A program made the translations under genes and the position numbers. Positions 33,334-37,508 of a stretch of 64,000 nucleotides of DNA are shown one piece after another (positions within the stretch are counted from its first letter, which is position 1; each line of letters begins with the position of its first letter). Source of the DNA: Asanoa sp. WMMD1127 (GTDB taxonomy: Bacteria > Actinomycetota > Actinomycetes > Mycobacteriales > Micromonosporaceae); the NCBI RefSeq assembly GCF_029626225.1, contig NZ_JARUBP010000001.1:4650001-4714000 (forward strand), in the 5' to 3' direction. Under the pieces are notes generated by a model. It saw nothing but the letters and a program-made list of their open reading frames with translations. It had not been told where the DNA came from and did no database searches.

Positions 33334-33841
33334 GGGTCGCCTCCTGGTCGGTGATGGCCGCGGCCAGGGCCCGCCGGCCCCGCGACAGCCTGGTCTTGAC
33401 CGCCTCGACGCTGCAGCCGAGCGTCCCGGCCACCTCGGCCACCGGCTGGTCGGCGATGTAGTGCAGCACCACCGCCTCCCGGATCGGCCGCGGCAGGGTC
33501 TGCAACGCCGCGACCAACGCGACATGGTCCGGTGAAAGGGGCGCGACCACGTCGTCCCGGCGAAGCCGCCCCGTCCGGGCCAACCGCTCGAAGAGCACCC
33601 GCCGCCGGTGCCGGGACCGTGCCACGTTCAGCGCCACGGTCCGCAGCCACGCCTCCGGGTTGTCGACGCCCCGCAGCCGTCCCGGCCGGGCGAGCACGCG
33701 CGCGAACGCCTCGTGCACCGCGTCCTGCGCCTCCGCGTAGTCGCCGGTCACGCCGAACAGCTGCGCCGTGAGCCGGGCCGCCGCCACCCGGTAGAGCTCG
33801 TGCAGGTCGACATCGCCGTCCACCGTCACCTCCGTCTTCAC
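33326..33841 (-). CDS. ECF RNA polymerase sigma factor (actinobacterial SigE-type)
   Basis: 171 residues. Sigma region 2 (ELYRVAAARLTAQLFGVTGDYAEAQDAVHEAFARVLARP) and region 4 (LPRPIREAVVLHYIADQPVAEVAGTLGCSVEAVKTRLSRG) are clear, shown here as identification segments: YAEAQDAVHEAFARV and EVAGTLGCSVEAVKTRLSRG. It binds core polymerase to read promoters of an envelope-type stress response. A GTG at 33841 is given; a GTG at 33823 with GGAGG upstream is also plausible. Coupled to the membrane propeller gene downstream, its probable controller. A -35-like GGAAC (complement of 33922-33926) lies upstream. Confidence 0.9.
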   Translation of the reverse strand: MKTEVTVDGDVDLHELYRVAAARLTAQLFGVTGDYAEAQDAVHEAFARVLARPGRLRGVDNPEAWLRTVALNVARSRHRRRVLFERLARTGRLRRDDVVAPLSPDHVALVAALQTLPRPIREAVVLHYIADQPVAEVAGTLGCSVEAVKTRLSRGRRALAAAITDQEATRA

Positions 33842-34019
33842 CCCCTACGACCCACGGCCGGCGCCGGAGGTGACAGGTCGCGTCCGCTCCAGATGGCGAA
33901 AACTCCGTCCATTCAGGACGGGTTCCGGCGAACATGACAACCCGTGGTCGGGCGGTCACATGGTGGCCACGGTTGCCGCATACGCTCCCGTCGTTCGGTC
34001 GACAGATGGGAGTACGTGT

Positions 34020-36269
34020 ATGCGAGCTCATGCTGGTCCACGACGAAGAAGCCTGGCCGCGGCGGTGGCGATCGCGGTCGTGGCGCAGTTGGCGATGTTC
34101 GCGGGCGAGGCGTCGGCGGAGGAGACGCCTCGTTGGCAGGACGGCGTCGCCGCGATTCCGACCACCGAATACACGCGCGACGCGCGCCAGTCGATCACCG
34201 ATGCCATCGACGCCGTACGGCCGTACCTCGGTGACGGGTTGGGCGAGAGCCGCGTCGACGCGGTGGCGGCCGACGTGGCCAACCGCTACTTCGACGGCGC
34301 GCGCTTCAAGGGCGCCGGCGACGGCGGCGCTTCGTTCGACAACCTGAAGCACCTGGCGTCCTATCTCAAGAGCCGGCTCAGCGGCAACCAGGTGCCGGAC
34401 GGGCCGGCCACGGAGGCGCACGCCACGGCGCTGGTCAACGTGCTGACCGCGATCCGGCTCCTGGCCGACGCGGCGATCCAGGACGCCGAGGCGACCATCG
34501 GGCCGTTCCGGCGCACCCCGCCGCCCGCGCCCGCGCCGCCCGGCCTCAGCGCGGCGTTCGGCGACCTCGACGCGGCGCGGTCCGGCCTCGACAAGGCCGA
34601 CAAGATGCTGGAGAAGGCCAACCCCACGTCCGCCACGGTGCACGCGGAGAAGGCCTGGGCCGACGGCTTCCACGTGCTGACCCGCCTCGGCATCACCTAC
34701 GACGGCGACCACGACGGCGACGGCGTGGTCGACGTGGTGGAGCTGCGGTTCGGCGCCAGCCCGCTGCTCGTCGACTCCGACGGTGACCAGCTGACCGACA
34801 AGTTCGAGATCACCGAGCTGGCCGGCCTGGCGATGCCCGGCCTGGCCGACACCGACCGCGACGGCGTCTCCGACGCGGCCGAAGACCCCGACAACGACGG
34901 CCTGACCAACCTGCAGGAGCAGGAGCTGGGCACCAGGCCGACCGATCCCGACACCGACGGTGACGGGGCCAGCGACGGCGCCGAGGTGGCTCAGGGCAGC
35001 AACCCGCTCGTGGCCGACCAACCGCGCGCCCCGCCGGCGCCCGGCGACGTGCCGCCGATCGTGGCCACGCCCAACGCGACGGACACCGACGGCGACGGGC
35101 TCATCGACGTCGCCGAGGAGGAAGCCCTCACCGACCTCAACAATGTGGACAGCGACGGCGACGGCCTGTCCGACGGCGACGAGGTCAACGAGCGGGGGAT
35201 CAACCCGCTGGCGCAGGACACCGACGGCGACGGCCTGCGCGACGACTACGAGGTCCAGCACGCCGAAGACCAGGGACTCGACCCGGCCCAGCCGGACGAG
35301 CAGATCGACAAGTGGACGTACGTCAGCGACTTCCTCCTCGGCATGTTCGCGGGCGACTTCGCGCCGCGCGACTCGATCGCCTGGCTCGCCGGCAACCTCT
35401 GCTCGGGGGGCCTGAGCGCCATCCCGGTCGTGGGCTGGATCCTCGGCGGCCTGGCCGACCTGCGCGACACCATCGCCGGCCTGATCCACGGCGACTGGGT
35501 CGGCGCGGGGCTGAGCATCCTCGGCGTGGTGCCCTACGCGGGCGACGCGATCGCGATCCCGGGCAAGGCGGCCCGGTTCGTCATCCGCTTCGCGCACCGG
35601 CTCGAACAGGTCGTGCTGATCGTCGCGACCTACGACAGCATCCCGGACAGCATCAAGGAGTCGGCGCTCGAGCTCATCCTGGGCGACGACTGGACCGCGA
35701 TCCAGGAGGCCGGCACCGCGGCGGCCCGCGCCGACGTCGGCATCATGGCGGTCCGGCCGGGCATGCTGCGGCTGGCCAAGGGAAAGCGGACGAGCTTCGC
35801 GCGACTGCGGGCGGCGTACCAGAACCCGTTGCACGTGCCGGGTCCGCGGGTGCGCTACATGTTCAACTGGCGCGACGGCGAGAACTTCGTCGCCGACAAC
35901 CTGCTGACCGGCGTACGCCATCGGGACCTCCGGGTGTCCACACCGCAGGTGCCGACGCCTCGGTCGGTCGCCCGCAAGCCGGACATCGCGGTCGAGGATC
36001 CGCCGGGCGAGCTCACGCTGCACGAGGTGAAGACCGGCGTCCCCGACTACGGCGGCGAGGTCGCGGAGTGTGAGAAGGACGCCTGGATGATGAAGCAGGC
36101 GAGCATCGACGCGAAGGACGCGACCGGCACGACGAAGAAATACAAGGTCCGTGCGGTGCACTGGCACTTCCTGCCGCACAATGCCTACGACACCCTGGGC
36201 CCCACCCAGGACGTGCTCGACTGCCTGATCCGAAACGGCATTCCTTACACGTTGCACTTCCCCGAGTGA
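34020..36269 (+). CDS. Secreted TSP3-repeat protein with C-terminal PD-(D/E)xK nuclease-like domain; putative polymorphic toxin
   Basis: 749 residues. Signal peptide (about 1-33, AAAVAIAVVAQLAMFAGEASA); helical domain to about 220; at least six thrombospondin-type-3-like calcium repeats (about 226-420, e.g. DHDGDGVVD, DSDGDQLTD, DTDGDGLID, DSDGDGLSD, DTDGDGLRD); a hydrophobic helical segment (about 458-530, AIPVVGWILGGLADL, AGLSILGVVPYAGDAIAIPG) like pretoxin or membrane-passage regions; and a C-terminal domain with PD (Asp655) then HEVKTG (Glu669, Lys671), the PD-(D/E)xK signature. The domain order matches exported polymorphic toxins. The ATG at 34020 follows GGGAG. It is followed by a small acidic gene, its likely immunity protein. 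Toxic activity is inferred. Confidence 0.8.
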   Translation: MRAHAGPRRRSLAAAVAIAVVAQLAMFAGEASAEETPRWQDGVAAIPTTEYTRDARQSITDAIDAVRPYLGDGLGESRVDAVAADVANRYFDGARFKGAGDGGASFDNLKHLASYLKSRLSGNQVPDGPATEAHATALVNVLTAIRLLADAAIQDAEATIGPFRRTPPPAPAPPGLSAAFGDLDAARSGLDKADKMLEKANPTSATVHAEKAWADGFHVLTRLGITYDGDHDGDGVVDVVELRFGASPLLVDSDGDQLTDKFEITELAGLAMPGLADTDRDGVSDAAEDPDNDGLTNLQEQELGTRPTDPDTDGDGASDGAEVAQGSNPLVADQPRAPPAPGDVPPIVATPNATDTDGDGLIDVAEEEALTDLNNVDSDGDGLSDGDEVNERGINPLAQDTDGDGLRDDYEVQHAEDQGLDPAQPDEQIDKWTYVSDFLLGMFAGDFAPRDSIAWLAGNLCSGGLSAIPVVGWILGGLADLRDTIAGLIHGDWVGAGLSILGVVPYAGDAIAIPGKAARFVIRFAHRLEQVVLIVATYDSIPDSIKESALELILGDDWTAIQEAGTAAARADVGIMAVRPGMLRLAKGKRTSFARLRAAYQNPLHVPGPRVRYMFNWRDGENFVADNLLTGVRHRDLRVSTPQVPTPRSVARKPDIAVEDPPGELTLHEVKTGVPDYGGEVAECEKDAWMMKQASIDAKDATGTTKKYKVRAVHWHFLPHNAYDTLGPTQDVLDCLIRNGIPYTLHFPE

Positions 36270-36276
36270 TGCGCTG

Positions 36277-36320
36277 AGGAGGTGAGCGGGTCGGGCCGGC
36301 CGCGAGGCCGACCCGACCCG
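36277..36320 (+). promoter_or_regulatory. Perfect Shine-Dalgarno separated from its start by a hairpin
   Basis: AGGAGGTGA (36277-36285) is a full complement of the 16S rRNA 3' end but lies 41 bases from the ATG at 36327. Between them, 36287-36301 pairs with 36306-36320 (14 of 15 pairs, tetraloop GCGA). If folded, only 7 bases remain between the Shine-Dalgarno and the ATG. No other ribosome site is seen for this gene. Confidence 0.6.
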
Positions 36321-36326
36321 GCTCCT

Positions 36327-36749
36327 ATGGGTGACCAACTGGTCGTCATGCGATTCGACGAGACCGGCAAGCCAGGCACCGACCTGCCGACCGACACGGT
36401 GGTACGCCACCTGCGCGAGCTGTTCGACGATGATCCAGAGCTGGACCTGCCGATGGCCGACGGCGACATCGTCGAACTGGAACGGACGGGCTCACGGGCG
36501 GGCCTCGACGGGTTCGTCTACGTGGGGTCGTCCGGCATCCAACGGGTGGTCATCGAGTTCAACGACACCTCGTGGGACGAGCCGGTGGAGGGCTTCCGCC
36601 AGGAGATCAGGCGGTGGCTCGAGGCGCTGGTCGCACTGGCGGCGGAGACCGACGCCCGCCTGTTCGACGTCGCGGACCCGGACACGACCAACCTGACCAC
36701 GTCCCGCGCCCTCGACCTGCTGGCCCCGACCATCCCGCCCGACGCCTGA
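36327..36749 (+). CDS. Small acidic protein, putative immunity protein of the upstream nuclease-like toxin
   Basis: 140 residues, strongly acidic (FDDDPELDLPMADGDIVELE), no signal peptide, so cytosolic. The beta-rich middle (GFVYVGSSGIQRVVIEFND) and helical C-terminus resemble generic small immunity proteins, but no family is recognised. It lies 57 bases after the toxin stop, on the same strand, which is the usual place of an immunity gene. A GTG at 36282 would add 15 residues but falls inside the Shine-Dalgarno. Role inferred from position and composition. Confidence 0.6.
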   Translation: MGDQLVVMRFDETGKPGTDLPTDTVVRHLRELFDDDPELDLPMADGDIVELERTGSRAGLDGFVYVGSSGIQRVVIEFNDTSWDEPVEGFRQEIRRWLEALVALAAETDARLFDVADPDTTNLTTSRALDLLAPTIPPDA

Positions 36750-36755
36750 GGTCGC

Positions 36756-37508
36756 TCAGGCCAGCAGGGTCGCGTCGGGGAGGGTCAAAGGTGACCAGGT
36801 GGGGGCGCCGGTGCGGCCGTGTTTCGGGTCTATCGCGTGGAAGTGGCCCGTGCCGATGCGGGTGACCGTGTGGCGCGCTGCCCAGTCCACGGTGGAGCGT
36901 TGGCGGATGCGTTCGCCGCAGGTCCAGGTTCGGTGGCGGTAGTTGACGATCGTCGAGTGGCCGTGGATCTGCGAGAACGGCATCGGTTGCGAGGCGTGCA
37001 GCCAGCCGTCGTAGAGGTCCGGGCCGGCTTCCGCCCACAACGGGCCCCGGTCGTGCCAGAGGAGGTCCGCCGGCCGCGTGTTCAGCAGATCCGCCGCCGT
37101 CGTGGCGGTGACCGGCTCGCCCAGCTCCCGCCACGCCGCCGGGGTGAGGCCGGCGTGGGTGACCAGGAACTCCTCGCCGTCCGCCGTGCGCACCGCCGCG
37201 GCCACGCGCAGCTGTTCCGTGAGCCACCACTCGCCCAGCAGCCGCGCGTCGCCCTCCGCGAGCGGATGCGGCCAGAACGGCTCCGCGCCCACGTACGGCG
37301 CCTCGTGGTTGCCGATCAGTTGGATCCAGCGCCGCCCCGGCAGCTGGTCGCCGACGAAGGCCAGGACACCCGGACTGTCCGGACCGCGGTCGACGAGGTC
37401 GCCGACCTGGATGAAGACCGCGTCCGGATCGGCCAGCAGCGGCGCGACCACCCTGGTGAGCTCGGCCGCGCAGCCACCGACGTCGCCGATGAGCACGATC
37501 TTCGGCAT
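36756..37508 (-). CDS. Metallophosphoesterase (PPP/bis(5'-nucleosyl)-tetraphosphatase-like)
   Basis: 250 residues. Motifs GDV (Asp9), VGDLVDRGPDS (Asp37), GNHE (66-69), and VTHAG are those of the PPP phosphoesterase family, which uses two metal ions to hydrolyse phosphoesters. The first-motif His is replaced by Gly (GDVGGC instead of GDxHG), which may weaken one metal site. Substrate unknown. AGGAGG precedes the ATG. Convergent to the putative immunity gene and divergent from the TmrB-like gene. Confidence 0.85.
   Translation of the reverse strand: MPKIVLIGDVGGCAAELTRVVAPLLADPDAVFIQVGDLVDRGPDSPGVLAFVGDQLPGRRWIQLIGNHEAPYVGAEPFWPHPLAEGDARLLGEWWLTEQLRVAAAVRTADGEEFLVTHAGLTPAAWRELGEPVTATTAADLLNTRPADLLWHDRGPLWAEAGPDLYDGWLHASQPMPFSQIHGHSTIVNYRHRTWTCGERIRQRSTVDWAARHTVTRIGTGHFHAIDPKHGRTGAPTWSPLTLPDATLLA

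What the first reader, a model, noticed from the sequence alone, without database searches (positions are those of the whole stretch)
36267..36330. Hairpin that brings a perfect Shine-Dalgarno to 7 bases from the start codon of the putative immunity gene
Seen: AGGAGGTGA at 36277-36285, a 15-base stem (one C-A mismatch) with GCGA loop at 36287-36320, ATG at 36327 and no nearer ribosome site. Linear spacing is 41 bases, useless; folded spacing is 7. Known: bacteriophage T4 genes 38 and 25 use a hairpin in the same way. Inference: translation of the immunity gene depends on this fold, and might differ with temperature or protein binding.
Basis: partly seen in the sequence, partly recalled or inferred. 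Interest (0 to 1): 0.75.

Follow-up and report, generated by a model that had tools for sequence, protein, structure and literature searches.

The report
Hairpin tucked inside ribosome-binding site
Between a very strong ribosome-binding sequence and the start of a bacterial self-protection (immunity) gene sits a long RNA hairpin that several related bacteria have kept, so the ribosome probably starts the gene by leaving the hairpin folded and reaching across its base, as is known for two genes of phage T4.

Summary
It is conserved: of five other genomes with a gene at least 65% identical, four keep the SD, the 15-pair stem and a folded spacing of 11 nt (window 10); three stem pairs changed on both sides. 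One such double change, in the window, removes a TTG that could have started an upstream ORF, yet keeps the pair. A 43%-identical relative has the same plan with a largely different 12-pair stem. The fifth close relative lacks the hairpin and has a linear SD. Predicted cost of melting the structure is 33-49 kcal/mol, of freeing the SD alone 1-5. A T4 gene 38/25-type split ribosome-binding site is well supported, but not shown by experiment. Temperature control is not supported. Two additions: in four of six members the SD can pair weakly with the linker before ATG (possible gate); and related toxin genes often have a hairpin after their stop, usually followed by a linear SD, so this one may descend from, or also act as, an attenuator. 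The pair looks like a PD-(D/E)XK nuclease toxin and its immunity protein (inferred).

The parts
36277..36285 (+). Shine-Dalgarno AGGAGGTGA, 9 bases complementary to the 16S tail (tail sequence recalled)
   Evidence: duplex -15.2 kcal/mol; identical in 5 of 5 aligned close relatives with the hairpin, window included
36287..36320 (+). 15-pair hairpin, loop GCGA, mismatch C36296.A36311
   Evidence: 74 of 75 cells paired, 3 pairs changed on both sides
36321..36326 (+). Linker GCTCCT between hairpin and start; can pair with the SD (possible gate)
36327..36749 (+). Putative immunity gene, start ATG 36327 (140 aa)
   Evidence: codons 1-4 identical in 6 of 6 close homologues; first strand of the model is residues 3-8
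34020..36269 (+). Putative secreted toxin gene, start inferred at ATG 34020 with GGGAG 34008-34012; stop 7 nt before the SD
   Evidence: TSP3_bac repeats; homologue just upstream of the immunity gene in L002, L004, L056, L057 and others
35670..36266 (+). C-terminal PD-(D/E)XK nuclease-like domain of the toxin
   Evidence: Invariant R, D and HEVK in 25 aligned sequences; model and structural matches

Best explanation
36277-36329 is a split ('accommodated') ribosome-binding site. The 16S tail pairs with AGGAGGTGA; the 15-pair hairpin stays folded and is left out of the path, so the ATG of the immunity gene lies about 10 nt from AGGAGG instead of 44. Shown here: the sequence, the predicted fold, its conservation with paired changes, a near-constant folded spacing, and no other SD. 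Inferred: that ribosomes start this way, that the fold is needed, and that ribosomes ending on the toxin gene (stop 7 nt before the SD) help to keep the SD free of its weak pairing with the linker.
For: SD, 15-pair stem and spacing kept in 4 of 5 other close genomes; 3 pairs with changes on both sides, 74 of 75 cells paired, slid controls 13.5-53.3%. L011 (43% identical): GGAGG, a 12-pair stem of largely different sequence, same folded spacing of 11 by hand count. SD near ATG only -1.7 to -2.6 kcal/mol in all six members against -10.8 to -15.9 for the distant SD; L003, without hairpin, has a linear SD of -11.4. Melting from SD to start costs 33.5-49.0 kcal/mol, freeing the SD 0.8-5.0, freeing SD, linker and start with the hairpin kept 7.0-12.3 (37 C). 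SD directly 5' of the stem in 5 of 5 immunity loci and 0 of 25 other hairpins found by the same model. T4 genes 38 and 25 are proven cases: 22 to 5 and 27 to 11 nt (PMC3014915, passages).
Against: No experiment. Only five close sequences and one distant; 15 of 500 shuffles match the covariation and they ignore relatedness; 10 of 15 pairs never vary, so sequence itself may be under constraint. The changes at two of the three double-changed pairs also fall on third positions of the possible upstream ORF in the four relatives (hand reading). With 130 nt of upstream sequence in the fold, the SD is predicted mostly paired in five of six members. Loose GGAGG-hairpin-start patterns are not above chance. 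Strong hairpins after the toxin stop are common in this toxin family without such an SD.
Confidence: 0.7

Rival explanations
1. The hairpin is chiefly a transcription terminator or attenuator (or RNase barrier) between toxin and immunity gene, and its place between SD and ATG is secondary.
For: 16 of 22 other measured toxin loci have a hairpin of -29 to -44 kcal/mol between toxin stop and next gene. L004 has a terminator-like T run after the stem. The next-best hits of the model are post-stop hairpins with similar cores, many of them one orthologous place.
Against: No terminator-like site by the tool's T-run rule in the window, though the region's other hairpins often lack T runs too. A terminator needs no SD 5' of it and no fixed distance to ATG. 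In G191 (L008/L055) the toxin is deleted but SD and hairpin are kept before an intact immunity gene. May well co-exist with the best explanation.
Confidence: 0.15
2. The SD serves a short upstream ORF starting at a TTG in the stem; ribosomes unwind the hairpin, stop at the TGA that overlaps the immunity ATG and restart there.
For: L002, L004, L007 and L008 have such a TTG 8 nt after AGGAGG with an open frame ending at that TGA (hand reading). In G191 the remnant toxin frame (31 codons) also runs through the hairpin to that TGA.
Against: The window has TCG there and L011 has no ATG, GTG, TTG or CTG between SD and start; in the window the change is matched by its partner, so the pair is kept and the start lost. 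The TTG lies inside the stem.
Confidence: 0.06
3. The main role is to hide the SD: it pairs with the linker at the foot of the hairpin and is freed by ribosomes ending on the toxin gene (structure-gated coupling); bridging is a by-product.
For: Consensus fold pairs SD with linker; local folds do so in window, L002, L004 and L007. Unfolding-type coupling is known in general (PMC12548453, passages).
Against: Freeing the SD costs only 4-5 kcal/mol in those four, 0.8 in L008, 2.3 in L011, against about -15 for the SD duplex. The same review reports that structure just after the upstream stop went with weaker coupling in one library study. It does not explain why the SD is so far away.
Confidence: 0.07

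Closest known systems
Phage T4 gene 38 and gene 25 split ribosome-binding sites (original papers Nivinskas 1999 and Malys and Nivinskas 2009 known here only as cited in PMC3014915, passages)
   Same: SD too far from AUG in line, hairpin between them, folded spacing 5 and 11 nt there and 10-11 nt here; kept in close relatives and absent from distant ones in both cases
   Different: Bacterial chromosome, toxin-immunity pair; the hairpin takes 34 nt out of the path against 17 and 16 in T4; 9-base SD; SD can pair with the linker in four of six members; no functional proof
Hairpin-then-linear-SD junctions of related Micromonosporaceae toxins (L079, L084, L091 and others)
   Same: Strong hairpin between toxin stop and next gene
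   Different: There a linear SD follows the hairpin; here the only good SD precedes it
Translational coupling of neighbouring genes (PMC12548453, passages)
   Same: Close neighbours in one direction, SD just after the upstream stop
   Different: Here the start is 57 nt beyond the stop with a stable hairpin between

Membership tests
Split (accommodated) ribosome-binding site of T4 gene 38/25 type | SD too distant from the start in line, none nearer | tested here: met
   44 nt from AGGAGG; near SD -1.7, distant -15.2 kcal/mol
Split (accommodated) ribosome-binding site of T4 gene 38/25 type | Stable hairpin between SD and start giving a workable folded spacing | tested here: met
   Predicted fold; folded spacing 10-11 nt in six members (hand count)
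Split (accommodated) ribosome-binding site of T4 gene 38/25 type | Pairing conserved in relatives | tested here: met
   98.7% of cells paired, 3 double-changed pairs, five sequences; few sequences
Split (accommodated) ribosome-binding site of T4 gene 38/25 type | Mutations that weaken the structure lower initiation; probing shows the fold | not testable with these tools
   Needs reporter assays and chemical probing
Intrinsic terminator | GC-rich stem followed by a T run | tested here: not met
L004 passes it
RNA thermometer | Structure hiding the SD opens over a physiological temperature range | tested here: not met
   Prediction only: stem unchanged 15-55 C, SD 0.23 to 0.42 unpaired in the window
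Polymorphic toxin and immunity pair | Secreted modular protein with a C-terminal toxin domain, small gene next to it | tested here: met
Polymorphic toxin and immunity pair | The small protein neutralises the toxin | not testable with these tools
   Immunity protein has no family hit and no clear fold match

The most novel reading that the evidence does not exclude
A split ribosome-binding site in bacterial chromosomes in which a hairpin too stable to melt is an obligate bridge for initiation and whose foot doubles as a gate: the SD pairs with the linker until a ribosome ends translation of the toxin 7 nt upstream, so immunity protein is made in step with toxin.
Probability: 0.3. Interest if true: 0.75.

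Novelty: new variant of a known kind. Interest (0 to 1): 0.62.

Why it matters
If true, bridging a hairpin between SD and start codon is not confined to phage T4 but is kept in bacterial chromosomes across genera, with a hairpin about twice as long. It would allow a direct test of how much folded RNA an initiating ribosome can leave outside its channel. It warns that gene finders that want a close SD will mis-start such genes (GTG 36282 is offered here), and it would tie toxin and immunity dosage to one RNA element.

Tried and rejected
GTG 36282 as start: overlaps the SD, and its frame is out of register in L002, L004, L007, L008. Met8 (ATG 36348) as start: L011 has isoleucine there, it would cut off the first strand of the model. 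Leaderless start from an own promoter: no sigma-70-like site in 33600-36900 (other promoter types not covered). RNA thermometer. Rfam: no match up to E 1 in 35900-36900. Loose GGAGG-hairpin-start count: not above chance.

Of the other matches I examined the 25 that became loci: 0 have an SD at the 5' foot of the stem; start-like triplets 3' of it in 16 of 25, so that half of the test does not discriminate; in L041 the place of the match was approximate. Immunity homologues in the order: 4 of 397 sampled genomes, three of them (own included) in this family and one weak partial match. One genome-contig scan gave 3 loci, the same places as three found by the genome search. Origin of the L011 element: with the long-branched L022 in the tree, holding the seven genes together is disfavoured (p-AU 0.02); after I dropped L022 they are one side at 91/85, not starred; the toxin tree leaves L076 (same locus) unresolved. 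One origin or two is open. Immunity fold: no clear PDB match.

Literature: searches (listings; 53 and 62 empty) showed only the T4 review as describing this arrangement; one search was on polymorphic toxins. The library is open-access PMC only, so absence is weak evidence.

Full report
Observation. AGGAGGTGA lies at 36277-36285, the stem at 36287-36301 with 36306-36320 (one C.A mismatch, loop GCGA), ATG at 36327. The stretch 36260-36340 folds at -45 kcal/mol, z -3.33, 0 of 200 shuffles as low. No useful SD lies 3-20 nt before ATG (-1.7 kcal/mol against -15.2 for the distant one).

Chance. In so GC-rich a genome loose matches abound: of 1,136 GGAGG sites in 464 kb, 69 are followed by a stem of at least 10 with at most one mismatch, 10 of these with ATG or GTG after it; five Markov copies give 426 and 105, so the real sequence is not enriched. 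By hairpin energy the window site is first of the sites scanned, -35.3 against -33.0 for the next. The weight therefore rests on conservation.

Relatives. The window's genome shares its genus with G003, whose copy is the same locus as Asanoa iriomotensis L002, so it is probably an Asanoa (inference). The immunity gene has matches in 18 of 354 family genomes, 19 places. Six of these genomes, the window's included, carry a copy at least 65% identical. Five of the six have SD-hairpin-ATG (window, L002/L005, L004/L010, L007, L008); the sixth (L003/L009) has neither hairpin nor toxin but a linear SD of -11.4 kcal/mol starting 18 nt before ATG. L011, 43% identical, has GGAGG, a 12-pair hairpin of largely different sequence, and ATG. 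The other 12 matches do not show the plan (read by eye).

Covariation. On the five close sequences 74 of 75 cells form standard pairs; ten pairs never vary, two vary on one side, three on both; 15 of 500 shuffles do as well, and slid structures pair 13.5-53.3% of cells. Five sequences are few. At columns 25/48 four relatives have U-A and the window C-G. The toxin tree puts the window among relatives that have U-A (98/92), so this is probably a double change in the window lineage; it keeps the pair and removes the TTG that could have begun an upstream ORF. Caution: at the other two double-changed pairs both sides fall on third codon positions of that possible ORF, so pairing and coding cannot be told apart there.

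Spacing. Counted by hand, the folded distance from AGGAGG (GGAGG in L011) to ATG is 10 nt in the window and 11 in L002, L004, L007, L008 and L011; in line it is 44, 45, 45, 45, 45 and 39.

Energies. At 37 C, from just before the SD to +20 of the gene, melting everything from SD to start costs 33.5-49.0 kcal/mol, freeing only the SD 0.8-5.0, freeing SD, linker and start with the hairpin kept 7.0-12.3. The SD duplex is worth -15.2 to -15.9 in five members and -10.8 in L011. Bridging is affordable, unfolding is not. Against easy access: with 130 nt upstream included, the SD is predicted mostly paired in five of six members, L008 being the exception; that upstream part is toxin coding sequence, which ribosomes would cover when the toxin is translated.

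A possible gate. RNAalifold pairs the SD with the pyrimidine-rich linker; local folds do so in window, L002, L004 and L007, not in L008 and not in the same way in L011. A ribosome stopping at 36267-36269 could keep the SD from the linker while leaving the main stem alone (inference). A review reports one library study in which structure just after the upstream stop went with weaker coupling (PMC12548453, passages), which speaks against.

The hairpin in its wider family. The toxin's C-terminal domain matched 31 of 354 genomes, 37 places; 30 became loci and were read. Five have the SD before the hairpin. Of 22 others measured, 16 have a strong hairpin and then a near SD of -4.8 to -12.0 kcal/mol, and 6 have no hairpin. 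Three (L097, L099, L101) were not measured and seven places had no locus. Two of the 16 also have an SD-like stretch between toxin stop and hairpin (L079 -11.7, L085 -9.3), besides their near SD. So hairpins at this junction are common in the toxin family; what sets the window's group apart is that the only good SD lies on the far side. The hairpin may have begun as an attenuator and been built into the start site.

A natural deletion. In G191 (L008/L055) almost the whole toxin gene is missing: its leader and first codons run straight into the SD and hairpin. The frame from the old toxin start crosses the hairpin and stops over the immunity ATG after 31 codons. So the element is kept without the toxin and is not just a toxin terminator; but re-initiation is possible in this genome, so it does not decide between the routes.

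Verdict. It works like a T4 gene 38/25 split ribosome-binding site with probability about 0.7. As a member of that kind it meets the sequence and conservation features tested; the functional ones are untested. It is a variant: bacterial chromosome, hairpin of 34 nt against 17 and 16, and a possible gate. Papers: passages of PMC3014915, PMC12548453 and PMC13009471; the rest were listings.

Noticed in passing
window 33890-33920: A stretch before the toxin start with GTCC/GGAC arms (CTCCGTCC-ATTCA-GGACG) is alike in G191 (L055) and L002; perhaps a leader or operator element of the toxin gene.
   Followed up: partly
L055 5273-5370 (G191): Natural deletion of nearly the whole toxin gene with immunity gene, SD and hairpin kept; the remnant frame of 31 codons ends over the immunity start.
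   Followed up: yes
L059, L061, L067, L068: Immunity-like genes with no homologous toxin in the fetched stretch (orphan immunity), beside L055.
   Followed up: no
L079, L081-L085, L087, L090-L096, L098, L100: Related toxin genes have a strong hairpin between their stop and the next gene, followed by a near SD: an unexplained common junction element.
   Followed up: partly
L030-L054: Model R1 picks up post-stop hairpins with GGGTCGACC-type cores in Micromonosporaceae, many at one orthologous place.
   Followed up: partly
window 36327-36338: Codons 2-4 of the immunity gene (GGT GAC CAA) are identical in 6 of 6 close homologues, though only 17 of 69 amino-acid-invariant codons are codon-invariant (136 codons compared); a UGG-GUGA-CCA mini-hairpin over the start is predicted.
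   Followed up: no
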